DNA of 36,557 nt, from assembly GCF_001571005.1 (NCBI RefSeq), contig NZ_BCST01000013.1:1-36557 (forward strand), written 5' to 3'. This DNA comes from Herbiconiux solani NBRC 106740 (lineage in GTDB: Bacteria > Actinomycetota > Actinomycetes > Actinomycetales > Microbacteriaceae). This document shows positions 11,402-34,210 of the stretch, one piece after another (within the stretch, counting starts at the first letter, position 1; every line of letters starts with the position of its first letter). Below the pieces are notes generated by a model. It saw nothing but the letters and a program-made list of their open reading frames with translations, made no database searches and was not told the origin of the DNA. Made by a program: the position numbers and the translations under genes.

Positions 11402-12745
11402 CTACGACTTCGCCTCGGCCTCCGCCTTCGCCAGCGGCTTCGCCGGCGACGCCCGCCGCGTACCCTTGGGCGACGTCGGCGTCGGCGACCCCTCACCCGA
11501 AGCAGCACCCGAAGCACCCCCGGCGCCCCCGGCGCCCCCGGCCGCGGCACCCACCCCGCCCGAGTCCTCAGCCCCGGCACCGAGCGTCCGCTCGAACCCC
11601 TCCGGCACCACGAGATCGTCCCGGCTCAGCTCGTGCACCGAGGCGTGACCTGTCCCGAGCACCGCCGAATCGAGCCCACCGCGCAGGATGTCGAGCACGT
11701 TCTCCACGCCCGCCTGCCCGTTGGCCGCGAGCCCCCAGAGGTACGCCCGCCCGATCATCACGGCCCGGGCCCCCAGGGCCACGGCCTTGGCGACGTCGCC
11801 ACCGCGCCGGATCCCGCCGTCGAGCACGACCTCCACCTGGTCTCCGACGGCCTCGACGACCGACGGCAGCATCCTGATCGTCGCCGGCGTGGTGTCGAGG
11901 TTGTTGCCGCCGTGGTTCGAGACCGAGATCGCGGTGACCCCGGCATCCACGGCCCGGCGCGCGTCGTCGACCCGGGTCACGCCCTTCAGCATGAACGGCC
12001 CGCCCCACTCCTCCCGGAGCCACGCGACGTCCTCCCACGTCGGCGGCGGAGTCTGCATCCATTCGTAGTAGGCGCCGAAGAAGGTGGGCGCGTCGCCCCC
12101 GGGCGGCTGGAGGTTCGGCGCGGTCAGGTCGGGCAGCTGCCCGGCACGCGCGAACTGCCAGAGCCACTTCGGATGCGGTAGCACGTTGGGCGCGAAGGTC
12201 ACCATGGTCTTGAGGTCGAGCTTCTCCGGGATCGACGGGCTCCCCCAGTCGCGCCCGTTCGAGAACGACCAGTCCAGCGTCGCGATCAACCCGCGAGCCC
12301 CGGCCTTCCGGGCCCGGTCCATCCGCTGGATCATCTGCTCCCGCGTCCCGGTCCAGTACATCTGGAAGAAGGTGTCCGGGTTCGCAGCCACGACCTCCTC
12401 GACCGGCTTCGAGGCGAACGAGGACAGCCCCATCGTGATGCCCCGGTTCGCGGCGGCGCGCGCCACGGCGACCTCGCCGTCGGGATGCACGGCCTGCACG
12501 CCGGTCGGCGAGATCATCACCGGGAACGACAGCGGCAGCCCCATGATCGTGGTCGACAGGTCACGCGCGGGCTTGTGCCCGGCGACGTGCGGCGCGAAGC
12601 CGATCTCGCCGAAGGCGCCCACGTTGTCGTCGATCGTGAGCCCGCGCTCCGACCCCGCGACCAGCGCTCCGTAGACCGAGCTGGGCAGTCGCCTCTTGGC
12701 CCGGCGCTGCGCCTCGGCCACCGTCTCGAACCATGCATTCGCCAT
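11402..12745 (-). CDS. mftD: Mycofactocin system FMN-dependent oxidoreductase MftD
   Basis: A flavoprotein of the lactate-oxidase/glycolate-oxidase family, 447 residues. In the pathway it oxidatively deaminates the MftE product to give pre-mycofactocin. Visible features are FPVMISPTGVQAVHPDGE (about 74-91), TLDWSFSNGRDWG, the FMN-contacting Lys in FMLKGV (K254), the active-site His in SVSNHGGNNLDTTP (H278), and the phosphate loop LDGGIRRGGDVAKAVALGA. The catalytic domain ends near residue 388. A Gly/Ala-rich, then Lys-rich tail of about 57 residues follows, which is not typical of MftD. ATG 12745 starts MANAWFETVAEAQ. The gene has its own upstream MftR-like operator and leads the mftDEF unit. 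Confidence 0.93.
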   Translation of the reverse strand: MANAWFETVAEAQRRAKRRLPSSVYGALVAGSERGLTIDDNVGAFGEIGFAPHVAGHKPARDLSTTIMGLPLSFPVMISPTGVQAVHPDGEVAVARAAANRGITMGLSSFASKPVEEVVAANPDTFFQMYWTGTREQMIQRMDRARKAGARGLIATLDWSFSNGRDWGSPSIPEKLDLKTMVTFAPNVLPHPKWLWQFARAGQLPDLTAPNLQPPGGDAPTFFGAYYEWMQTPPPTWEDVAWLREEWGGPFMLKGVTRVDDARRAVDAGVTAISVSNHGGNNLDTTPATIRMLPSVVEAVGDQVEVVLDGGIRRGGDVAKAVALGARAVMIGRAYLWGLAANGQAGVENVLDILRGGLDSAVLGTGHASVHELSRDDLVVPEGFERTLGAGAEDSGGVGAAAGGAGGAGGASGAASGEGSPTPTSPKGTRRASPAKPLAKAEAEAKS

Positions 12746-12821: not shown

Positions 12822-13694
12822 TTATCGCCGGAACACCTCGCCCAGTGCCGGCGCGATGTCGTGGAAGGTGCGGATCGCCCGGAAGGTGCCGCGCCCGATC
12901 CGCGCGAGGTCCCGGCCCAGCTCGACGTCCTTCTCCCCGCTGGTGTCCAGCAGCACGTCGAGCCGCGGCAGCCGCCCGGCGAGCGGCCGCGGATCCGGCC
13001 CCGCGTTGTGCACGCAGTCGGAGAGCAGGATGACGCGGGCGTTCCGGGGCGGCACGCCCGCGAGCTGCCCGGCGGCCAGCTGCAGCGGGAAGGCGAGATT
13101 CGTGAGCCCGCGGGCCGGCAGCCGCAGCATCGCATCGAGCAGTTCCATCGGCCGCACCGGATCGCCGAGCCGCTGCAGCACCACCGCATCCGACCAGAAC
13201 GCGATCACCGACAGCGCGTCCTGCCCGAGCTCCCCGGCGAGCGCGCCGACGGTCGCCGCCGCGGTGCGCACCCGCTCGCCCTTCATCGAGCCCGAGACGT
13301 CGACCGCGAGCACCACCGAGCGCTTCGCGCGCACCCGTTCGCGCACGACGATGTCCTCGTCGTCCGGCACCGGCTTCTCGGCCAGCACCTGCAAGGTGCG
13401 GTCGAGGTCGATGTCGTCGCTGCTCCCCCGGTAGGCCACGCTCCCGAAGCGCCCGGCGCCCCGGTCCCTCGCCGTGTCGGCCACGGGCTTCGGCACCGAC
13501 AGTCGTGCGGCGATCTGCGCGGCGCGGAGCCGCACGGCGGGATCGACGGTTGCCGTCTCCTCCTCCAGCGCCAACGACCCCTCGTCGTCGGTGAACCCGG
13601 CCCCCGAGGCGCTCGGCTTCGTCGCCGCCGCCGACCCGCGGCCCGGTTGCGGTCTCATGACGAGCCCCGAGCCGCTGCCGGCGATGCTGAACAC
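12822..13694 (-). CDS. VWA (von Willebrand factor A) domain protein, partner of MoxR; start uncertain
   Basis: A 290-residue protein if begun at GTG 13694. The VWA domain covers about 125-290, with the MIDAS motif DVSGS at 132-136 (LAVDVSGSMKGERVRT) and a later Asp in LLSDCVHN. VWA proteins next to MoxR ATPases act as metal-dependent adaptors in chaperone-like assembly machines. GTG 13694 has GAGG 8 nt upstream. Yet coding-like sequence in the same frame (NAKPLRRKPKQLTEDP) runs back 37 codons to the MoxR stop TGA with no ATG, GTG or TTG on the way. The overlapping ATGA at 13809 is in another frame. The true N-terminus may be longer. The stop is 76 bp from mftD. Confidence 0.85.
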   Translation of the reverse strand: MFSIAGSGSGLVMRPQPGRGSAAATKPSASGAGFTDDEGSLALEEETATVDPAVRLRAAQIAARLSVPKPVADTARDRGAGRFGSVAYRGSSDDIDLDRTLQVLAEKPVPDDEDIVVRERVRAKRSVVLAVDVSGSMKGERVRTAAATVGALAGELGQDALSVIAFWSDAVVLQRLGDPVRPMELLDAMLRLPARGLTNLAFPLQLAAGQLAGVPPRNARVILLSDCVHNAGPDPRPLAGRLPRLDVLLDTSGEKDVELGRDLARIGRGTFRAIRTFHDIAPALGEVFRR

Positions 13695-13805
13695 CGTCGG
13701 ATCCTCGGTCAGCTGCTTCGGCTTCCGCCGCAGCGGCTTCGCGTTCCGCGAGGGCGGTCGCGCATCCGTCTTGCGGCTGATCGGCGAATCGGCCTCGACC
13801 GCTCT

Positions 13806-14717
13806 TCATCCCGGATCCGCCCGGGCCGGCTCGAGCACGAAACGGTCCTCCCAGATCTCCCGCAGCACCCGCTCCGGGGTCGTCTCCGCCGCCTCGTCGA
13901 CGTGGATGCGGCCGGACAGCGCCACGAGCATCGCGTCGAAGACCGTGTCCTGGTACTCCTCCTGCGTCGGCGCCGGCAGGCCCCGAAGCTCGAACAGCTC
14001 GTGCGCGACCAGTGCGCAGTCGATCGCGCCGCGCACGCTCGAGCCCTGACGCACATCCGGATGCTCGCGGGTCGCCCGCGTGACGGCGACCGCGTCCGGG
14101 ATGATCCGCTCCGAGAGCTCGCCGTGGAGTCCTGTGCGCAACGCCACGATCCCCCGTTCGGCCTCGGCGTCCTGGTAGCCGACGACGATCCGGTTGAGCC
14201 GGTCGGAGACGCTCGTCGACAGCCGGGTGGTGCCGACGTTGTCGAAGGGGTTCATCGAGGCGATCACCCGGAAGGTGGGCTGCGCCTCGACCCGGCCCAC
14301 CCGCGGCACCTCGACGGCCCGGTCGGCCATCGCGGTGAGCAGGGTGTTCAGGGTGTCCTCGGGCGCTCGGTTGAACTCCTCGATGTAAAGAAACCCGCCC
14401 TGCCGCATCGCCTCGACGAGGGGTCCGGCGACGAAGTTGTCGGCGCTGTAGTCCTCCCTCAGCACCCGGGCCGGGTTGTGGTGCCCGACGAGCTTGGCGG
14501 GGGTCAGGTCGGCGTTGCCCTCGACGAACAGCAGCGGGATGCCCCACTCCTCGGTGATCGCCTTGAGCATCGTGGTCTTGCTCGTGCCCGGCGGCCCCTC
14601 GAGCACCAGGTCGCGCCCCGCGGCCACGGCCGCGAGCGCGAGTTCCAGTTCGCGCTCGCGGCCGACCAGGTGCGAGGCAATGCGCCGCCGGGTGTCGGTG
14701 ATGTCCGTCTCGCCCAT
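13806..14717 (-). CDS. MoxR family AAA+ ATPase
   Basis: An AAA+ ATPase of 303 residues. Walker A is GPPGTSKT at 41-48 and Walker B FLYIEEF at 109-115, then VIASMNPFDNVGTTRLS (sensor region) and SDRLNRIVVGY. MoxR ATPases work with VWA proteins as chaperones; the founding member is linked to methanol dehydrogenase maturation in methylotrophs. Here it lies in the mycofactocin locus, 40 bp downstream of an SDR and directly before a VWA gene in the same reading frame. ATG 14717 is preferred because AAGGA lies 5 nt upstream; ATG 14723 is an alternative. A role in assembling or activating mycofactocin dehydrogenases is inference. Confidence 0.9.
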   Translation of the reverse strand: MGETDITDTRRRIASHLVGRERELELALAAVAAGRDLVLEGPPGTSKTTMLKAITEEWGIPLLFVEGNADLTPAKLVGHHNPARVLREDYSADNFVAGPLVEAMRQGGFLYIEEFNRAPEDTLNTLLTAMADRAVEVPRVGRVEAQPTFRVIASMNPFDNVGTTRLSTSVSDRLNRIVVGYQDAEAERGIVALRTGLHGELSERIIPDAVAVTRATREHPDVRQGSSVRGAIDCALVAHELFELRGLPAPTQEEYQDTVFDAMLVALSGRIHVDEAAETTPERVLREIWEDRFVLEPARADPG

Positions 14718-14757: not shown

Positions 14758-15597
14758 CTACTTGATCGTGTAACCGGCGTCGACCTTGAGCTCGGTGCCG
14801 GTGACGTACCGCGCCTCGTCCGAGGCGAGGAACAGGACGGCGTTCGAGATGTCGATCGGCTCGACCCACGGGATCGGCAGGGCATTCGTCGTCTCGAAGA
14901 TCGGCGCGGCCTGCTCCTTGGTGGGGTGCTCGACGTCCGGCATGAACAGCCTGAACGTGGCTTCGTTCAGGATCATGTCGGTCGCGACCCCGGTGGGGTG
15001 CACCGTGTTCACCCGGATGCGGTGCGGCGCGAGCTCCAGCGCGAGGGTGCGCATGATGCCCACGACCGCGTGCTTCGACGCCGTGTACGCCACGACGTTC
15101 GGGGTGCCCTTGAGGCCCGCGGTCGAGCTGGTCAGGATGATCGACCCGCCCGTGCCCTGCTCGATCAGGTGCGGGATGACCGCTTTCGCGGTGTGCCAGA
15201 CGCCCTTCGCGTTGATGTCGTTGACCATCTCCCACTCGGCGTCGGTGACCAGTTGCGACTGCTCACCGAAGGCGAAGATGCCGGCGTTCGCCGAGACGAT
15301 GTCGACGTGCCCGAGTTCGGCGACCCCCGCATCCAGCGCCGATTTGAGCGCGTCGTAGTCGCGCACGTCGGCCTTGGTGGCGACGATCCGCCGGTCGAGC
15401 GCCTCGACCTGGCGGACGGTCTCGGCGAGGTCCTCCTCGGTGGCCCCGGGGTAGAACTTGTCCATCCCAGGGATCGACTCGGCGATGTCGACCGCGATGA
15501 TGTCGGCGCCCTCCTGGGCCAGGCGCAGCGCGTGGCTGCGGCCCTGGCCACGGGCGGCTCCGGTGATGAAGGCGACCTTGCCGTCTACGCGTCCCAT
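14758..15597 (-). CDS. Mycofactocin-coupled SDR family oxidoreductase (third of three)
   Basis: A short-chain dehydrogenase/reductase of 279 residues. The NAD-binding motif is TGAARGQGRSHALRLAQEG at 13-31, the NAG motif is SANAGI, the catalytic Ser is in ILTSSTAG and the catalytic pair in YTASKHAV. The long insert before the NADVRD-like strand (EEDLAETVRQVEALDRR) is typical of mycofactocin-linked SDRs, which hold their nicotinamide cofactor tightly and pass electrons to mycofactocin instead of exchanging it. The substrate, probably an alcohol, is unknown. It shares an almost identical first 35 residues with its two upstream paralogues. ATG 15597 follows the paralogue's stop by 10 bp. Confidence 0.9.
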   Translation of the reverse strand: MGRVDGKVAFITGAARGQGRSHALRLAQEGADIIAVDIAESIPGMDKFYPGATEEDLAETVRQVEALDRRIVATKADVRDYDALKSALDAGVAELGHVDIVSANAGIFAFGEQSQLVTDAEWEMVNDINAKGVWHTAKAVIPHLIEQGTGGSIILTSSTAGLKGTPNVVAYTASKHAVVGIMRTLALELAPHRIRVNTVHPTGVATDMILNEATFRLFMPDVEHPTKEQAAPIFETTNALPIPWVEPIDISNAVLFLASDEARYVTGTELKVDAGYTIK

Positions 15598-15607
15598 GCC
15601 GCACCCC

Positions 15608-16441
15608 CTACTTGATCGCCGCGCCGGCATCGACCGGGAGCGGGACCCCCGTGATGTAGCGCGATTCGTCGGAGGCGAGGAAGAGCACGGCGTTGGAGAT
15701 GTCGACCGCCTCGACCCACGGGATCGGGAGCGCGTTCATCGCGACCGCGGCCTGGGCGAAGTCGTCCTTCGTCGGGTTCTCGAGGTCCGGCCGGAACAGG
15801 CGGTAGATGCCGTCGTTCTGCACCATGAGCGTGTCGACCGTGGTCGGATGCACGCTGTTGACCCGGATGAAGTCGGGCGCGAGCTCGAGCGCCAGTGTGC
15901 GCATCAGGCCCACCACTCCGTGCTTCGCCGACACGTAGTGCGAGATGTTGGCGTAGGGGAACAGCCCCGCGTCCGAGCTGGTCAGGATGATCGACCCGCC
16001 GCGTCCGCCCGCCTTCAGATGCGGGATGGCGGCTTTCGCGGTGCGCCAGACGCCGTTGAGGTTGATGTCGATCATCCTCATCCACTCGTCCTCCGGCACG
16101 TCCTCGGAGAGGTTCGGCCGGCCCGCGATGCCCGCGTTCGCCGAGACGATGTCGAGCCGCCCGAGCTGGGCGACCCCGTCGTCGACGGCGGCCTTCAGGG
16201 CGTCGAAGTCACGCACGTCGGCCTTGCTGGCGATGATCCGGCGGTCGAGCGCCTCGACCTGCCTGACCGTCTCGACGAGATCCTCTTCGGTCGCCGGAGG
16301 ATACGGGTTCTCCGGCAGATCCTCCAGGTAGTCGATCGCGATGATGTCGGCGCCCTCCTGGGCCAGGCGCAGCGCGTGACTGCGCCCCTGTCCTCGTGCG
16401 GCTCCGGTGATGAACGCCACTTTTCCTTCTACACGCCCCAT
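15608..16441 (-). CDS. Mycofactocin-coupled SDR family oxidoreductase (second of three)
   Basis: An SDR of 277 residues. It has TGAARGQGRSHALRLAQEG, the SANAGI motif, Ser in ILTSSDAG, and YVSAKHGV with catalytic Tyr and Lys. The VETVRQVEALDRRIIASKADVRD insert marks it as a mycofactocin-type SDR. It differs from its neighbours mainly in the substrate-side region (LMVQNDGIYRLFRPDLENPTKDDF), so the three may handle different alcohols. The C-terminus GVPLPVDAGAAIK is typical of SDRs. The start is ATG 16441; the gap to the upstream SDR is 57 bp. Confidence 0.9.
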   Translation of the reverse strand: MGRVEGKVAFITGAARGQGRSHALRLAQEGADIIAIDYLEDLPENPYPPATEEDLVETVRQVEALDRRIIASKADVRDFDALKAAVDDGVAQLGRLDIVSANAGIAGRPNLSEDVPEDEWMRMIDINLNGVWRTAKAAIPHLKAGGRGGSIILTSSDAGLFPYANISHYVSAKHGVVGLMRTLALELAPDFIRVNSVHPTTVDTLMVQNDGIYRLFRPDLENPTKDDFAQAAVAMNALPIPWVEAVDISNAVLFLASDESRYITGVPLPVDAGAAIK

Positions 16442-18959: not shown

Positions 18960-19070
18960 CTAGTAGACGCCGCACATCCCGTCGATCGACACTTCTTCTA
19001 CCAGTGAGTCGGCCTCCACCAGCTCGTCGTCGGTGAGAACCTGGTCACGTTCACTCGTGTTGTCACTCAT
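18960..19070 (-). CDS. mftA: Mycofactocin precursor peptide MftA
   Basis: A 36-residue ribosomal peptide, the source of the cofactor. It starts MSDNTSERDQVLTDDELVE and ends VSIDGMCGVY, the C-terminal signature of MftA. The final Val-Tyr is what MftC cross-links; MftE then cuts it free. The acidic leader (about 1-28) is the part recognised by MftB. GGAGC lies 4 nt before ATG 19070. It is the first gene of the leftward operon, with the MftR-like operator 51 bp upstream. Confidence 0.95.
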   Translation of the reverse strand: MSDNTSERDQVLTDDELVEADSLVEEVSIDGMCGVY

Positions 19071-19120: not shown

Positions 19121-19139
19121 ACTAATGACACCGAGTGCC
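19121..19139. promoter_or_regulatory. Probable MftR operator in the mftA/mftR divergent promoter
   Basis: The plus strand reads ACTAATGACACCGAGTGCC, with imperfect palindrome GACAC-N3-GTGCC. It shares 15 of 19 bases with the site before mftD (12798-12816). The centre triplets of the two sites (CGA here, TCG there) are reverse complements, as expected for a symmetric dimer site. It sits between divergent mftA and mftR, so MftR could repress both. Confidence 0.75.
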
Positions 19140-19158
19140 GAATGGAAGGGGTGCCCGC

Positions 19159-19800
19159 ATGAATCAACTCCGGCTCCCGGATGAGGCCCGGCCCGCCGAC
19201 CAGCCCCGGCTCGGGCGCCAGCCGTCGACCTCGCGCAACGAGCTCAGCCACCTCGCCCTGCAGCTGTTCATCGAGAAGGGCTTCGACGAGACGACGATCG
19301 ACGAGATCGCGGCACGCGCGGGCATCGGCCGACGCACCTTCTTCCGCTACTTCTCGTCGAAGAACGATCTGCCATGGGGCGACTTCGAGGAGCTGCTCGA
19401 CCGGCTCCGGCGGCACCTGCAGGAGCTCCCCGCCGATCTGCCGCTGCTCGATGCGCTCCGGCTCGCGGTGATCGAGTTCAACCGGTTCCCGGCCGAGGAG
19501 GTGCCGTACCACAAACGCCGGATGGACCTCCTGCTGAACGTGCCCACGCTGGTGGCGCACTCGACGCTCCGCTACGCCTCCTGGCGCGAGGTGGTCGCCG
19601 TTTTCGCCGGCGAGCGCCTGGGGCTCCCGGCCGACGACCTCGAGCCGCAGGTGATCGCGTGGACGGCGCTGGCCGTCTCGCTCGCCGCCTACGAGCAGTG
19701 GCTGCGCCGCGACGACGCCGATCTGGCCGAGCTGCTCGACGAGGCCTTCCGCAAGCTGCCGACCACGATCGCGACCGACGCGGAGCCGCGCGGGCGATGA
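19159..19800 (+). CDS. mftR: Mycofactocin system TetR-type regulator MftR
   Basis: A TetR-family repressor of 213 residues. The HTH is at about 25-75 (SHLALQLFIEKGFDETTIDE, then IAARAGIGRRTFFRYFSSKND). The ligand domain has EFNRFPAEEVPYHKRRMDLL and a helical C-terminus. MftR of mycobacteria responds to acyl-CoA; the ligand here is assumed similar. ATG 19159 is chosen because GGAAGG lies 9 nt upstream; GTG 19135 would put the start inside the operator. The stop overlaps the mftG start as ATGA. Autoregulation is likely because the palindrome at 19121-19139 directly precedes it. Confidence 0.92.
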   Translation: MNQLRLPDEARPADQPRLGRQPSTSRNELSHLALQLFIEKGFDETTIDEIAARAGIGRRTFFRYFSSKNDLPWGDFEELLDRLRRHLQELPADLPLLDALRLAVIEFNRFPAEEVPYHKRRMDLLLNVPTLVAHSTLRYASWREVVAVFAGERLGLPADDLEPQVIAWTALAVSLAAYEQWLRRDDADLAELLDEAFRKLPTTIATDAEPRGR

Positions 19801-30605: not shown

Positions 30606-31898
30606 TCAGGCGTCGACGGTCTCGTGGCGGGGGAAGCGGGCGAAGAGCTTGTCGAAGACGACGTGGCGGTCGAACTGCCGCGCGTACTCCCGGGCCCGTG
30701 CGGCCTGGTCGGCGCGCTCGGCCGGGGTCGTGCGGATGACGGCCTGATCGATCGCCTCGGCCACCGCATCCGGATCGTTCACCGGCACCACGATCGCGTG
30801 CTCGCCGATCGCCTCGCCGATCCCGCCGGTCAGCGTCGTGATGACGGGGCCGCCGCCCGCGAGCATCTTCTCGGCCAGCGCGATGCCGAAGGTCTCGACG
30901 AACTCGGGCCGGGGCTTCGACGGCAGCACGAACGCGGCGCAGCCGGCCATCAGGAAGGGCTTCTCGGCGTCTCCGACGTCGTCGAGAAAGCGGATGCGGT
31001 GGGCCAGCGGCGAGGCGGCCGCCAGCTCCCGCAGTGCTCCGGCCTGCGGTCCGCGTCCCGCGATGATCAGGGGCAGATCCGTTGCGCGCCCGACCTCGCT
31101 GCGTTCGAAGCCGCCGATCAGGTCGTCGACGCCCTTCGCATCCGTCAGCCGGGAGAGGAAGAGCAGGTAGCCGTCGCGGCGGAGTCCCCGTGCGGTGACG
31201 ACGTCGTCGATCGTCTGCTCGTCGAGGTCGAGGTAGGCCGCCGCGTCGATCGCCGGGTACGAGACCTCGATGCGGTCGCGGCACTGCTCGGCGAAGCGGG
31301 TGCCGTGCTGGTCGTCGACCCGCTGGGCCTCCGAGATGATCAGGTCGCGGGTGTACTCGGAGACGGCGACGCAGTGGTCCTGGCTGAGGTAGCTCGAGAG
31401 GATGTGCGCGGCGGCTCCGAGCCGGCCCTCCTCGACCGCGGTGCGCACGACGTTGGTCACGTCGGAGCCGACCGCCTCGGCGATCGTCGTGACGTTGACC
31501 GGCAGGCCCGTGCCCCAGGCGGCGCGCACGGCGTCGGCGACCGCGATGGTGTGGGGGCTGAGGTAGAGCGAGAGCGCGACCGTGGGCACCCCGTCGGTGA
31601 AGAGCTCGACCAGGCGGCCGGTGATGCCGGCCAGGTAACGGCCGTCCGGCACCTTGTAGTCGCCGACCGGGGCCGGGCGCTCGACGATGATGCCCGGGCT
31701 GTAGGGCAGCACCGAGTCGAGGGGCTTGAGCGGCAGGCCGGCCGCCTCGAGGCGCTCGATCGGCCAGGTGACGATGCGCACCTCGTCGAAGCCGCGGGCG
31801 AGAGCGGTCTCGGCGAGGTTGCGGCCCTCGACGGAATGCCCGCAGATGACCGGATCGGCGCGGTTGACGATCACGAGGCGGTTGCGGATCGCGGTCAT
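30606..31898 (-). CDS. GT4-type glycosyltransferase
   Basis: A GT-B fold glycosyltransferase of 430 residues. The C-terminal donor domain holds LLFLSRLTDAKGVDDLIGGF (about 240-260), LIIAGRGPQAGALRELAAA, and the family E-x7-E motif in FVETFGIALAEKML (about 320-335), then GGIGEAIGEHAIVVPVNDPD. The N-terminal acceptor domain starts IVNRADPVICGHSVEGRNLAETALARG. The donor and acceptor are not known. Its ATG overlaps the stop of the GH92 gene by 4 bp, so both are made together and may act on the same sugar. Confidence 0.88.
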   Translation of the reverse strand: MTAIRNRLVIVNRADPVICGHSVEGRNLAETALARGFDEVRIVTWPIERLEAAGLPLKPLDSVLPYSPGIIVERPAPVGDYKVPDGRYLAGITGRLVELFTDGVPTVALSLYLSPHTIAVADAVRAAWGTGLPVNVTTIAEAVGSDVTNVVRTAVEEGRLGAAAHILSSYLSQDHCVAVSEYTRDLIISEAQRVDDQHGTRFAEQCRDRIEVSYPAIDAAAYLDLDEQTIDDVVTARGLRRDGYLLFLSRLTDAKGVDDLIGGFERSEVGRATDLPLIIAGRGPQAGALRELAAASPLAHRIRFLDDVGDAEKPFLMAGCAAFVLPSKPRPEFVETFGIALAEKMLAGGGPVITTLTGGIGEAIGEHAIVVPVNDPDAVAEAIDQAVIRTTPAERADQAARAREYARQFDRHVVFDKLFARFPRHETVDA

Positions 31899-34210
31899 GG
31901 GGTTGCTCCTGTCGGCTGGGTGGGGGCGGGGGTGGTCATGGGGGCCGGCGTGGTGGTCACGATCGTGGCGATCGGGGCCGTCGACGGGAAGGGGTCGGTG
32001 AGAACGGGCGTGCCGGCCGCGGGCGGGTACGAGGGCGGGAGGTCGACGGTGCCCCAGTCGGAGGGCTCCGGGCCGAGCTCGACGAGCAGCTCACCACCGC
32101 GGTGGAACTCGTCGCCGGTCAGGTGGGTGCGCGCGAGCGGAGCACCGTTCAGCCGCACCGAGCGCACGTACTGCACCGGGCCGCCCGGGGTGGGCTCCAC
32201 GAAGCCCACGGTGCGGATGGCGAACTCGCCGCCGGCGACCGCGATCGTCGACTCGGCGAACGAGGGTGCGTTGATCAGCAGCATGTTCTGGCCGGCGACC
32301 GGGAACAGCCCGAGCGAGGCCCAGACGAGCCACGAGCTGAGTCCGCCGGAGTCGTCGTTGCCGGGCAGGCCGCCCCGCCCGGTTCCGAACTGCTGGTGCA
32401 CGGCGTGGTGCACGACCTCGGCCGTGCGGTCGGGGCGACCGGCGTAGTGGTACGCCCACGGTGCATCCATGTCGGGTTCGTTGTTGAGGCCTTCGAACCG
32501 GCCGAGCACGTAGCCCGCCAGCAGCTCTTCGGCATCCGGAGCCACCCCGAGCTGCGTGACGGGCGGCGCTCCGTAGCCGAAGAACGCGTCGAGCTGCTCG
32601 AGGAAGTGCTCGGGCCCGCCACTCAGCGCGATCCGGCCGGCCATGTCGTGCTGCAGGCGGAAGGAGTAGTTGTAGCGCGAGCCCTCGTAGTACGTCGAGT
32701 CCTTGAGCAGTCCCGTCGAACGGTCGTAGGCGTTGACCCAACGCTCGGCGAGCGCCTCGAACTGGGCGGCCAGGGCATGGTCGCCGACGTGCCGGGCGAC
32801 GCGGGCCGTGCACCAGTAGCCGTACGCGAGGTCGAGGGTGTGCGTGATCGGATGCGCCTCGCCGCGGAGCAGGTACTCCTCGCCGTAGGTGCGGCGCAGG
32901 TCGTCGGACATGTGCACGAGGGCCCAGTCCCAGTCGATCCCGGGCACGCCGAGCTGGCAGAGGTCGGCGAGGAAGGTGTGCGCGAGCGCCGACCCCTGGC
33001 GCGAGAAGCGGTCGCCGCCGCGGGCGAGCCGGTAGCCGATCGGGAAGTTGCCCTCCTCCTCGCAGATCGTGAGCAGGGCGTTGGCGAGCTCGACGGCCCG
33101 CTCGGGGAAGAGGGTCGTCAGCAGCGGCAGCTGGGTGCGGTAGATGTCCCACATCGTCGAGATGTCGAAGACGAACGGGCCGTCGCTCGGCCAGAACGGG
33201 CTCTCGGAGTCGGCGAAGCTCGGCTTGATCAGCGAGTGGTAGAGCGCGGTGGAGAACACCGTGCGGCGGGCCGTCGAGGGTGTGTCGACGGCGATCGTCT
33301 TGAGGTGTTTGCGCCAGGTCTTCTGGGTGCGCTCGCGCCGGGCCTCGAACCGGCCCGGGCCCGGGCCGCAGTCGGCGCGGAGGTTCTGCTCGGCCTGCTC
33401 GACGCCGCGGAACGAGAAACCGATCCGCAGCTCGATCGTCTGCCCCGGTTCGCTGGGGCCCGCCCACATCAGGCCGAAGGGCCGCAGGGTCGTGGGCCGG
33501 ATGTGGTCGAAGTCGAGCCGGGTGCCGCCCGGCATCAGCCGCCGGTCGTACCAGAGCATCTGCCGCCACTGCGGGGCGTCGCACTCGATGTGCACGGCGA
33601 TCGGCGCACCCTCGGCGACCACGACTCCGCTGGCGACACCCGGCTCGATCGTCTCGAGGTGGGCGCGGAGCGGGATCGTGGCCCCGTACGGGATCGCGAG
33701 GCCGCCGAGCGAGAAGTCGATCACGATGCGCGCGTTGGCGTGCCGGGGGAAGGTGTACCGATGCACGGCGCTCTTCGGCCCCACCGTGATCTCGGCGGTA
33801 ATGCCGGAGTCGAGGGTGGCGGAGTAGAGGCCGGGGGCAGCCTCCTCGTCGGTGATCTGCCAGGTGCGGCCGAGCACGTCGAGTGGCTCGATCATCGGCG
33901 TGACGCGAAAGTAGTTGTAGTACTTGCGGATCGCCCCGGTGCCCGACTGCTGGAAGTGCGTGAAACCCGAGGCGAGCTGGTCGTCGTGGATGGTCGTCGG
34001 CACGCCCTCGAGGCTCAGATCGAAGCGGCCGTAGCCGGTCGGGTAGGCGCCGGAGTAGGCGCAGGCCGAGACCATGCCGAGGGGGTAGGTGGCGCCGGGG
34101 TGGGTGTTGCCGACCTGCGGCTTGGGCCACCACCAGGTCGCGGCGAGGCCGGACTGCGGGGGCAGGTCGGTGATGCCGGTGCCGATGAAGGGGTCGACGC
34201 GGTCGAGCAT
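31895..34210 (-). CDS. GH92 family alpha-mannosidase, no signal peptide
   Basis: A glycosidase of 771 residues with GH92 signatures: GNTHPGATYPLGMVSACAYSG (about 35-55), TMWDIYRTQLPLLTTLFPER (about 345-365), NNEPDMDAPWAYHYAGRP, and GLPGNDDSGGLSSWLVWASLGLFPV with catalytic Asp residues. GH92 enzymes are Ca2+-dependent exo-alpha-mannosidases. The N-terminus MLDRVDPFIGTGITD has no hydrophobic signal, unlike many secreted members, so the enzyme probably works in the cytoplasm or by an unusual route. A Pro/Thr-rich tail of about 40 residues ends the protein. GGAAGGGG lies 6 nt before ATG 34210. It is coupled to the GT4 gene downstream. Confidence 0.9.
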   Translation of the reverse strand: MLDRVDPFIGTGITDLPPQSGLAATWWWPKPQVGNTHPGATYPLGMVSACAYSGAYPTGYGRFDLSLEGVPTTIHDDQLASGFTHFQQSGTGAIRKYYNYFRVTPMIEPLDVLGRTWQITDEEAAPGLYSATLDSGITAEITVGPKSAVHRYTFPRHANARIVIDFSLGGLAIPYGATIPLRAHLETIEPGVASGVVVAEGAPIAVHIECDAPQWRQMLWYDRRLMPGGTRLDFDHIRPTTLRPFGLMWAGPSEPGQTIELRIGFSFRGVEQAEQNLRADCGPGPGRFEARRERTQKTWRKHLKTIAVDTPSTARRTVFSTALYHSLIKPSFADSESPFWPSDGPFVFDISTMWDIYRTQLPLLTTLFPERAVELANALLTICEEEGNFPIGYRLARGGDRFSRQGSALAHTFLADLCQLGVPGIDWDWALVHMSDDLRRTYGEEYLLRGEAHPITHTLDLAYGYWCTARVARHVGDHALAAQFEALAERWVNAYDRSTGLLKDSTYYEGSRYNYSFRLQHDMAGRIALSGGPEHFLEQLDAFFGYGAPPVTQLGVAPDAEELLAGYVLGRFEGLNNEPDMDAPWAYHYAGRPDRTAEVVHHAVHQQFGTGRGGLPGNDDSGGLSSWLVWASLGLFPVAGQNMLLINAPSFAESTIAVAGGEFAIRTVGFVEPTPGGPVQYVRSVRLNGAPLARTHLTGDEFHRGGELLVELGPEPSDWGTVDLPPSYPPAAGTPVLTDPFPSTAPIATIVTTTPAPMTTPAPTQPTGATP

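What the first reader, a model, noticed from the sequence alone, without database searches (positions are those of the whole stretch)
12822..14717. MoxR ATPase and VWA protein built into a mycofactocin locus
The pair sits between the three mycofactocin-type SDRs and mftD, on the same strand with small gaps. MoxR/VWA pairs assemble or activate metal- or cofactor-containing complexes; the founding MoxR is tied to methanol dehydrogenase, a PQQ enzyme. By analogy this pair could load or remodel mycofactocin dehydrogenases. Gene order and motifs are seen; the role is inference, and I know of no established MoxR/VWA function in mycofactocin metabolism.
Basis: partly seen in the sequence, partly recalled or inferred. 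Interest (0 to 1): 0.78.

Follow-up and report, generated by a model that had tools for sequence, protein, structure and literature searches.

The report
One recoded gene, two chaperone subunits
Two neighbouring bacterial genes, for a protein-remodelling motor and its partner, look like one gene interrupted by a stop codon that ribosomes sometimes read through, and this unit travels with the genes for the redox cofactor mycofactocin.

Summary
The pair is real and lies in a locus with mftA-F and mftR.

The main finding is new: the pair reads as one recoded gene. VWA continues in the AAA+ frame straight after a TGA, without a conserved start codon. In this class the stop is TGA in 36 of 36 junctions, followed by AGA/AGG in 35, with purifying selection right after it. 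In sister clades VWA is in the -1 frame, with a slippery heptamer (51 of 54) and a stem-loop soon after (48 of 51). Others have uninterrupted fusions. Each clade can thus make AAA+ and AAA+-VWA subunits, as frameshifted chlD does. -1 frameshifting is strongly supported by sequence; TGA readthrough in the window, and remodelling of mycofactocin-dependent dehydrogenases, are inferred.

The parts
13809..14717 (-). AAA+ ATPase (MoxR superfamily, NorQ/CbbQ-like), short product; Walker A GPPGTSKT at 14574-14597, Walker B region at 14376-14393 (motif names recalled)
13806..13808 (-). in-frame TGA between AAA+ and VWA coding parts: proposed readthrough codon
   Evidence: TGA in 36 of 36 in-frame-class junctions; sense codon GAG in two natural fusions nested in the same clade
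13803..13805 (-). AGA codon directly after the TGA; proposed part of the recoding context (TGA-AGR)
   Evidence: AGA or AGG in 35 of 36 junctions although AGR is 0.54% of codons in the same genes
13551..13820 (-). linker of the read-through product, mostly low-confidence in the model, with conserved RxVEADSP and PLRRKPKQL segments
   Evidence: pN/pS 0.43 in this frame over the first 11 codons after TGA, 0.99 and 1.92 in the other frames; pLDDT under 50 at residues 300-332, 347-350, 358-389
12825..13805 (-). VWA coding part in the frame of the AAA+ gene (stop TAA 12822-12824); VWA domain about 12825-13547, MIDAS-type DVSGS at 13287-13301
   Evidence: VWA_2 40.6 bits; same-frame translation; D473, S475, S477 invariant in A3
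14758..15597 (-). mycofactocin-coupled SDR directly upstream of the AAA+ gene
   Evidence: TIGR03971 397.4 bits, cut-off 300
15608..16441 (-). mycofactocin-coupled SDR
   Evidence: TIGR03971 398.7 bits
16499..17305 (-). mycofactocin-coupled SDR
   Evidence: TIGR03971 359.2 bits
17363..18679 (-). mftC radical SAM maturase
   Evidence: TIGR03962 657 bits
18676..18975 (-). mftB
   Evidence: TIGR03967 106.3 bits
18960..19070 (-). mftA-like precursor peptide ending IDGMCGVY
   Evidence: found by a V-Y-stop scan; the typical MftA ending is recalled
19135..19800 (+). mftR regulator
   Evidence: TIGR03968 266 bits
11402..12745 (-). mftD
   Evidence: TIGR03966 708.6 bits
10517..11347 (-). mftE
   Evidence: TIGR03964 293.6 bits
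9066..10520 (-). mftF
   Evidence: TIGR03965 423.8 bits

Best explanation
The two genes are one translation unit that makes two nested products: the AAA+ ATPase alone and, when a fraction of ribosomes passes the junction, an AAA+-linker-VWA fusion. In the window and its clade the pass is readthrough of an in-frame TGA in the context GGN-TGA-AGR. In Pseudonocardia, Acidimicrobiia and others it is -1 ribosomal frameshifting at T_TTT_TTC, G_GGA_AAA or C_CCA_AAA before a stem-loop. In Rubrobacter and Chloroflexota-type loci it is replaced by two genes, an AAA+ gene and an uninterrupted AAA+-VWA fusion. The recoding would set the ratio of plain to VWA-bearing subunits in a mixed AAA+ ring, comparable to the NorQ hexamer with one NorD. 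The ring most likely remodels or reactivates the mycofactocin-dependent nicotinoprotein dehydrogenases encoded next to it, for instance by opening the site that holds non-exchangeable NAD. Shown by sequence: one continuous constrained frame, recoding signals in sister clades, natural fusions, tie to mft. Inferred: that the TGA is actually read through, ring stoichiometry, and the client.
For: Frame classes: 54 junctions at -1, 36 in-frame TGA, 14 fused rows (13 distinct), none at +1 apart from one dropped row. -1 class: in-frame heptamer within 110 nt before the stop in 51 of 54, against 6 of 321 control windows of 100 nt in the same AAA+ genes; perfect stem of at least 5 bp starting 4-9 nt after the heptamer in 48 of 51 against 100 of 1010 control positions; VWA frame open upstream past the heptamer in 51 of 51. 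TGA class: TGA 36 of 36, AGR next in 35 of 36; pN/pS 0.43 after the TGA, like 0.38 before it, against 0.99 and 1.92 in the other frames (35 loci); no column of the first 50 codons after the TGA has a start codon in more than 18 of 35 loci, and the first in-frame start lies up to 118 codons away; the distance from TGA to the PLRRxPK motif varies from 15 to 28 codons while staying in frame. Two fusions without a stop (L070, L086) sit inside the TGA clade (support 96/92) with GAG at the TGA position and no AGR after it. An AAA+ gene directly before an AAA+-VWA fusion in L088, L090, L091, L110. Link to mft. Dehydrogenase directly upstream in 50 of 76 loci. Precedent: chlD frameshifting (passages of PMC9227772 and PMC5009743); NorQ hexamer with one NorD (passages of PMC9976466).
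Against: No conserved RNA structure follows the TGA (mean z -0.64 against -0.73 for a VWA control stretch). 19 of 35 TGA-class loci hold some in-frame ATG/GTG/TTG between the TGA and the PLRRxPK motif, so internal starts are possible in part of them. L059 breaks the TGA-AGR rule; L084, L111 and L124 lack a canonical heptamer and L121, L122 and L136 lack the stem. 25 of 53 mftC genomes lack the pair and 5 of 33 carriers lack mftC; none of those 5 has mftD or the TIGR03971 SDR over cut-off. One same-family genome (G032) has mftC without the orthologue. No protein or ribosome data were available. Counts and p-values ignore shared ancestry.
Confidence: 0.76

Rival explanations
1. Two separate proteins. 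VWA is made by termination-reinitiation near the AAA+ stop or from an in-frame start in the linker, and the two proteins bind non-covalently as NorQ and NorD do.
For: Known pairs such as NorQ/NorD are separate proteins (PMC9976466 passages). 19 of 35 TGA-class loci have some in-frame ATG/GTG/TTG before the PLRRxPK motif. Window GTG at 13694 is in frame.
Against: The codon before the TGA is GGT 12, GGC 10, GGA 9, GGG 3, ACT 2, so an overlapping NTGA start is not favoured, and it would be out of the VWA frame. No start position is conserved (at most 18 of 35). Selection starts at the first codon after TGA. Slippery heptamers with stem-loops in sister clades and natural fusions argue for a fused product.
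Confidence: 0.14
2. Recoding is right but the client is not a dehydrogenase: the complex acts on mycofactocin biosynthesis (for example MftD or MftF) or on metal delivery, like Mg- or Co-chelatase subunits.
For: The pair lies between the SDRs and mftD in the window. The AAA+-VWA architecture resembles chelatase D subunits. The link is to mftC presence even where the pair is not next to mft genes.
Against: 25 of 53 mftC genomes make do without the pair. Where no mft biosynthesis gene is near, the pair still follows an SDR in several loci (L062, L063, L071, L074, L076, L078, L080, L084), and in Acidimicrobiia it follows NDMA-dependent ADHs. Chelatase large subunits were not looked for.
Confidence: 0.25
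3. The TGA is decoded as selenocysteine or is a reassigned codon.
For: An in-frame TGA inside a conserved open frame.
Against: Own genome: no selB over cut-off (best 194.5 against 242.25 bits) and no tRNA-Sec over the gathering score (43.6 against 47). TGA also ends the VWA ORF in 32 of 36 of the same loci. The two natural fusions have Glu, not Cys, at this position.
Confidence: 0.02
4. The pair is an ordinary MoxR/VWA module that happens to lie beside mft genes.
For: Every genome searched has some MoxR-type match (60 of 60 at E <= 0.001).
Against: The close subfamily follows mftC: 9 genomes with both and 7 with neither of 16 in the genus; 11 of 12 carriers with mftC in the order sample; 26 of 26 tested unlinked cases with mftC.
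Confidence: 0.02

Closest known systems
fs-chlD, magnesium/cobalt chelatase gene with programmed frameshifting (passages of PMC9227772 and of PMC5009743 read)
   Same: One gene yields a small AAA+ subunit and a longer AAA+-VWA subunit by recoding; some lineages instead carry a separate small-subunit gene
   Different: Not chlD by family score (BchD-ChlD 26.4 bits against 499.55); heptamers here are G_GGA_AAA, T_TTT_TTC and C_CCA_AAA rather than the A_AAA_AAR reported there; a TGA variant in the same frame; tied to mycofactocin
NorQ/NorD and CbbQ/CbbO (MoxR AAA+ with VWA partner)
   Different: The VWA part is short and, on this reading, covalently tethered to an AAA+ subunit through a flexible linker; clients differ
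Mycofactocin system (MftA-F, MftR, nicotinoprotein SDR/ADH)
   Same: Same locus and same genomes
   Different: I found no AAA+ or VWA component described: no word match for MoxR, VWA, von Willebrand, ATPase or CoxE in Haft 2011 (PMC3023750), none for MoxR or VWA in PMC11778925, no paper with mycofactocin, VWA and AAA, and the one paper that holds both 'mycofactocin' and 'MoxR' (PMC8191103) was seen only as a listing
dnaX tau/gamma (passages of PMC5009743)
   Same: Recoding used to fix the ratio of two nested AAA+ subunits
   Different: Different AAA+ protein and function

Membership tests
programmed -1 frameshifting (sister clades) | X_XXY_YYZ heptamer in the zero frame shortly before the zero-frame stop | tested here: met
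   51 of 54 against 6 of 321 control windows
programmed -1 frameshifting (sister clades) | stem-loop a short spacer downstream | tested here: met
   48 of 51 against 100 of 1010 control positions
programmed -1 frameshifting (sister clades) | trans-frame product observed | not testable with these tools
   no protein data
programmed stop-codon readthrough (window clade) | conserved stop with coding constraint in the same frame after it | tested here: met
   36 of 36 TGA; pN/pS 0.43 against 0.99 and 1.92
programmed stop-codon readthrough (window clade) | conserved stop context | tested here: met
   AGR in 35 of 36
programmed stop-codon readthrough (window clade) | stimulatory RNA structure | tested here: inconclusive
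   none conserved in +4..+90; that readthrough does not always need one is recalled
programmed stop-codon readthrough (window clade) | extended protein detected | not testable with these tools
   no protein data
chlD / chelatase D subunit | family score over curated cut-off | tested here: not met
   TIGR02031 26.4 of 499.55; TIGR02442 26.1 of 779.45
MadB family ATPase / GvpN | family score over curated cut-off | tested here: not met
   NF047784 57.4 of 475; TIGR02640 80.1 of 266.8
NorQ/CbbQ-type MoxR AAA+ | AAA+ fold with Walker motifs | tested here: met
NorQ/CbbQ-type MoxR AAA+ | hexameric ring bound to VWA partner | not testable with these tools
   no biochemical data
mycofactocin system | co-occurrence with mftC | tested here: met
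   28 of 33 carriers in 396 genomes; 26 of 26 tested unlinked cases
selenoprotein | Sec machinery in the genome | tested here: not met
   selB and tRNA-Sec below cut-off in the own genome

The most novel reading that the evidence does not exclude
A dedicated AAA+ activase of mycofactocin nicotinoproteins exists, and its two subunits are made from nested reading (AAA+ and AAA+-VWA). Evolution has swapped the device that makes the second subunit between TGA-AGR readthrough, -1 frameshifting with different heptamers, and gene duplication with fusion, while keeping the product pair. The TGA-AGR junction would be a conserved programmed readthrough in Actinobacteria without a visible RNA structure.
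Probability: 0.45. Interest if true: 0.92.

Novelty: new variant of a known kind. Interest (0 to 1): 0.82.

Why it matters
It would add an ATP-driven component to mycofactocin metabolism, whose dehydrogenases are reported to hold NAD that does not exchange, and give a testable question: why do some mycofactocin organisms have it and others not. It would also be a second AAA+/VWA system in which subunit ratio is fixed by recoding, with an unusual set of natural variants (readthrough, frameshift, fusion) of one gene. A gene caller that stops at the TGA would be expected to report an ATPase and a VWA protein with a wrong start (inference; no annotation of these loci was read).

Tried and rejected
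Selenocysteine: rejected. Overlapping NTGA start for VWA: out of frame, and N is not biased to A or G. Conserved downstream start codon: none. RNA structure after the TGA: none found. +1 class: the single '+1' row (L111) comes from a VWA split over two frames, probably an assembly indel, and was dropped. Rfam and tRNA scans of the window: nothing. Recoding signals inside the natural fusions: one out-of-frame CCCAAAC in L070, two in-frame CCCAAAG in L110, none in the other 12 rows; no pattern. Papers: mycofactocin with VWA and AAA, 0 papers; mycofactocin with MadB/MadC, nothing relevant; MoxR with frameshift, 12 papers, listing seen, no relevant title; chlD with programmed frameshifting, 1 paper; UGA readthrough in Actinobacteria, 10 of 344 listed, none relevant by title. 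The original 2020 chlD paper is recalled, not seen. 15 of 76 loci have no mycofactocin-type dehydrogenase in reach, many of them Pseudonocardia, and neighbours there were of mixed kinds, so neighbourhood alone does not name the client.

Rows dropped before counts: L008, L009, L011, L014, L107 (copies of L027-L030 or L007), L082 (copy of L081), the '+1' row of L111, and loci in which no VWA was found. L109 repeats L088 and is still among the 14 fused rows (13 in the tree). L033, L072, L089 (edge) and L106 were left out of the neighbour count. L059 was left out of the selection test.

Full report
What is there. The genome's same-genus relatives include Herbiconiux: loci L027-L029 lie on contigs of the same lengths as those of same-genus genomes G012, G013 and G003. 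On the minus strand the window carries an mftA-like peptide, mftB, mftC, three mycofactocin-coupled SDRs, the AAA+/VWA pair, mftD, mftE and mftF, with mftR divergent; the mft genes other than mftA and the SDRs are over NCBIfam cut-offs.

One frame, not two genes. The AAA+ gene (14717-13806) ends in TGA, and the VWA frame is the same frame directly after it. In eight genus members the residues just after the TGA are conserved (R-A-V-E-A-D-S/T-P ... P-L-R/K-R-K/R-P-K-Q-L) without a common start codon. With loci from two further searches I classified 104 junctions after removing duplicates: 36 with an in-frame stop, 54 with VWA in the -1 frame, 14 uninterrupted fusions (L088 and L109 are the same sequence, so 13 distinct), and no reliable +1 case.

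In-frame class. The stop is TGA in 36 of 36; the next codon is AGA or AGG in 35 of 36, while AGR is 5.0% of Arg codons and 0.54% of all codons in these genes. Over the first 11 codons after the TGA, pN/pS is 0.43 in the VWA frame and 0.99 and 1.92 in the other two; the last 11 AAA+ codons give 0.38, 1.61 and 1.97 (35 loci). The distance from the TGA to the PLRRxPK motif varies from 15 to 28 codons, always in frame; the best column for a start codon has one in 18 of 35 loci, and the first in-frame start lies 3 to 118 codons after the TGA. In 16 of 35 loci there is none before the motif and in 19 there is one (for L045 the motif was missed by the pattern, and its first start is at +129 nt). I found no conserved RNA structure after the TGA. 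Two natural fusions (L070, L086) lie inside the TGA clade (96/92) and have GAG at the TGA position, followed by AAC or CAT instead of AGR. That fits a pass through the stop in the others and an AGR that serves the stop rather than the protein, though it is one event in one small clade.

-1 class. A zero-frame X_XXY_YYZ heptamer lies within 110 nt before the AAA+ stop in 51 of 54 junctions: T_TTT_TTC (as CAT TTT TTC) in 22 Pseudonocardia and Actinomycetospora-type loci, G_GGA_AAA in 26, C_CCA_AAA in two, A_AAA_AAA in one. Windows of 100 nt in the AAA+ gene body have one in 6 of 321. A perfect stem of at least 5 bp starts 4-9 nt after the heptamer in 48 of 51 against 100 of 1010 random positions in the same genes; examples are CCCGGCG-GGCAG-CGCCGGG and GCCCC-NNNN-GGGGC. 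The VWA frame is open upstream past the heptamer in 51 of 51. Exceptions: L084, L111, L124 without heptamer; L121, L122, L136 without the stem.

Fusions. In Rubrobacter marinus, a Sphaerobacter MAG, another Chloroflexi MAG and genome G111 a VWA-free AAA+ gene stands directly before the fusion. The long ORF of L094 holds two AAA+ domains, and the genome of L108 (G382) has a second AAA+ copy on the same contig. L070, L086, L115, L119, L128, L129 and L133 show a single AAA+ hit in their loci, and the genomes of the last five have one match each; how these would make a short subunit is open. On the AAA+ tree the three classes need at least 6 changes.

Tie to mycofactocin. Genus: 9 of 16 genomes have the orthologue and the same 9 have mftC; 7 have neither; one genome of another genus in the same 60 (G032) has mftC without it. 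Order sample: 12 of 297 carry it, 16 have mftC, 11 both; the exception (G610) is 88% complete. Phylum sample: 33 of 396 carry it, 53 have mftC, 28 both (cross-tabulated by hand; Fisher p 1.4e-22 without the own genome, ancestry ignored). In 21 of those 28 the two are on one contig within 25 kb. Of the 80 loci, 54 show no mftC in the stretch fetched; I tested 26 of these 54, and 26 of 26 genomes have mftC (not a random choice, and two, L081 and L082, are near-copies). Against this, 25 mftC genomes lack the pair, and 5 carriers lack mftC (G090, G101, G229, G364, G409; two are under 90% complete; none has mftD or the TIGR03971 SDR over cut-off).

Function. In 50 of 76 loci a mycofactocin-type dehydrogenase lies directly upstream on the same strand: SDRs similar to those of the window in 41, and in 9, mostly Acidimicrobiia, a homologue of the NDMA-dependent ADH identified in L097 (TIGR03989). 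NorQ works as a hexamer with one NorD, and chlD uses frameshifting to make both chelatase subunits (passages of PMC9976466, PMC9227772, PMC5009743). I therefore propose a mixed AAA+ ring, with a minority of VWA-bearing subunits set by recoding, that remodels mycofactocin-dependent dehydrogenases. That such enzymes hold non-exchangeable NAD is the title claim of PMC5264612 (seen in the listing). Ring, ratio and client are inferences.

Limits. No protein data; MAG contigs of mixed quality (L033, L041 carry unlikely names and are probably misbinned); loci are related, so counts are not independent; families and genera of the surveyed genomes are coded, not named.

Noticed in passing
window 18960-19070 (-): An mftA-like 36-codon ORF ending IDGMCGVY overlaps the first start of the mftB ORF, so mftB probably starts further downstream than 18975.
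   Followed up: partly
window 11402-11587 (-): mftD is 447 aa against a 385-position family model: about 60 extra C-terminal residues rich in Ala, Pro and Gly.
   Followed up: no
L059 (Pseudonocardia sp. OFTM335): In-frame TGA followed by CTG, not AGR, outside the main TGA clade; possibly a separate origin of the in-frame arrangement. Another contig of the same isolate holds a -1 copy (L076).
   Followed up: no
L037: mftR and mftF each give two adjoining tblastn hits in a complete chromosome, perhaps frame breaks.
   Followed up: no
L033, L041: Contigs labelled Mucilaginibacter and Acidobacteria carry genes that group with Microbacteriaceae on the AAA+ tree: probably misbinned MAG contigs.
   Followed up: no
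L136 (genome G101): Long-branch AAA+/VWA pair in a genome without mftC, with a run of nine A before the stop: possibly another recoded AAA+/VWA system outside mycofactocin.
   Followed up: no
window 31895-34210 (-): GH92-type glycosyl hydrolase (TIGR01180 252.6 bits, cut-off 249.55) beside a glycosyltransferase, outside the mft locus.
   Followed up: no
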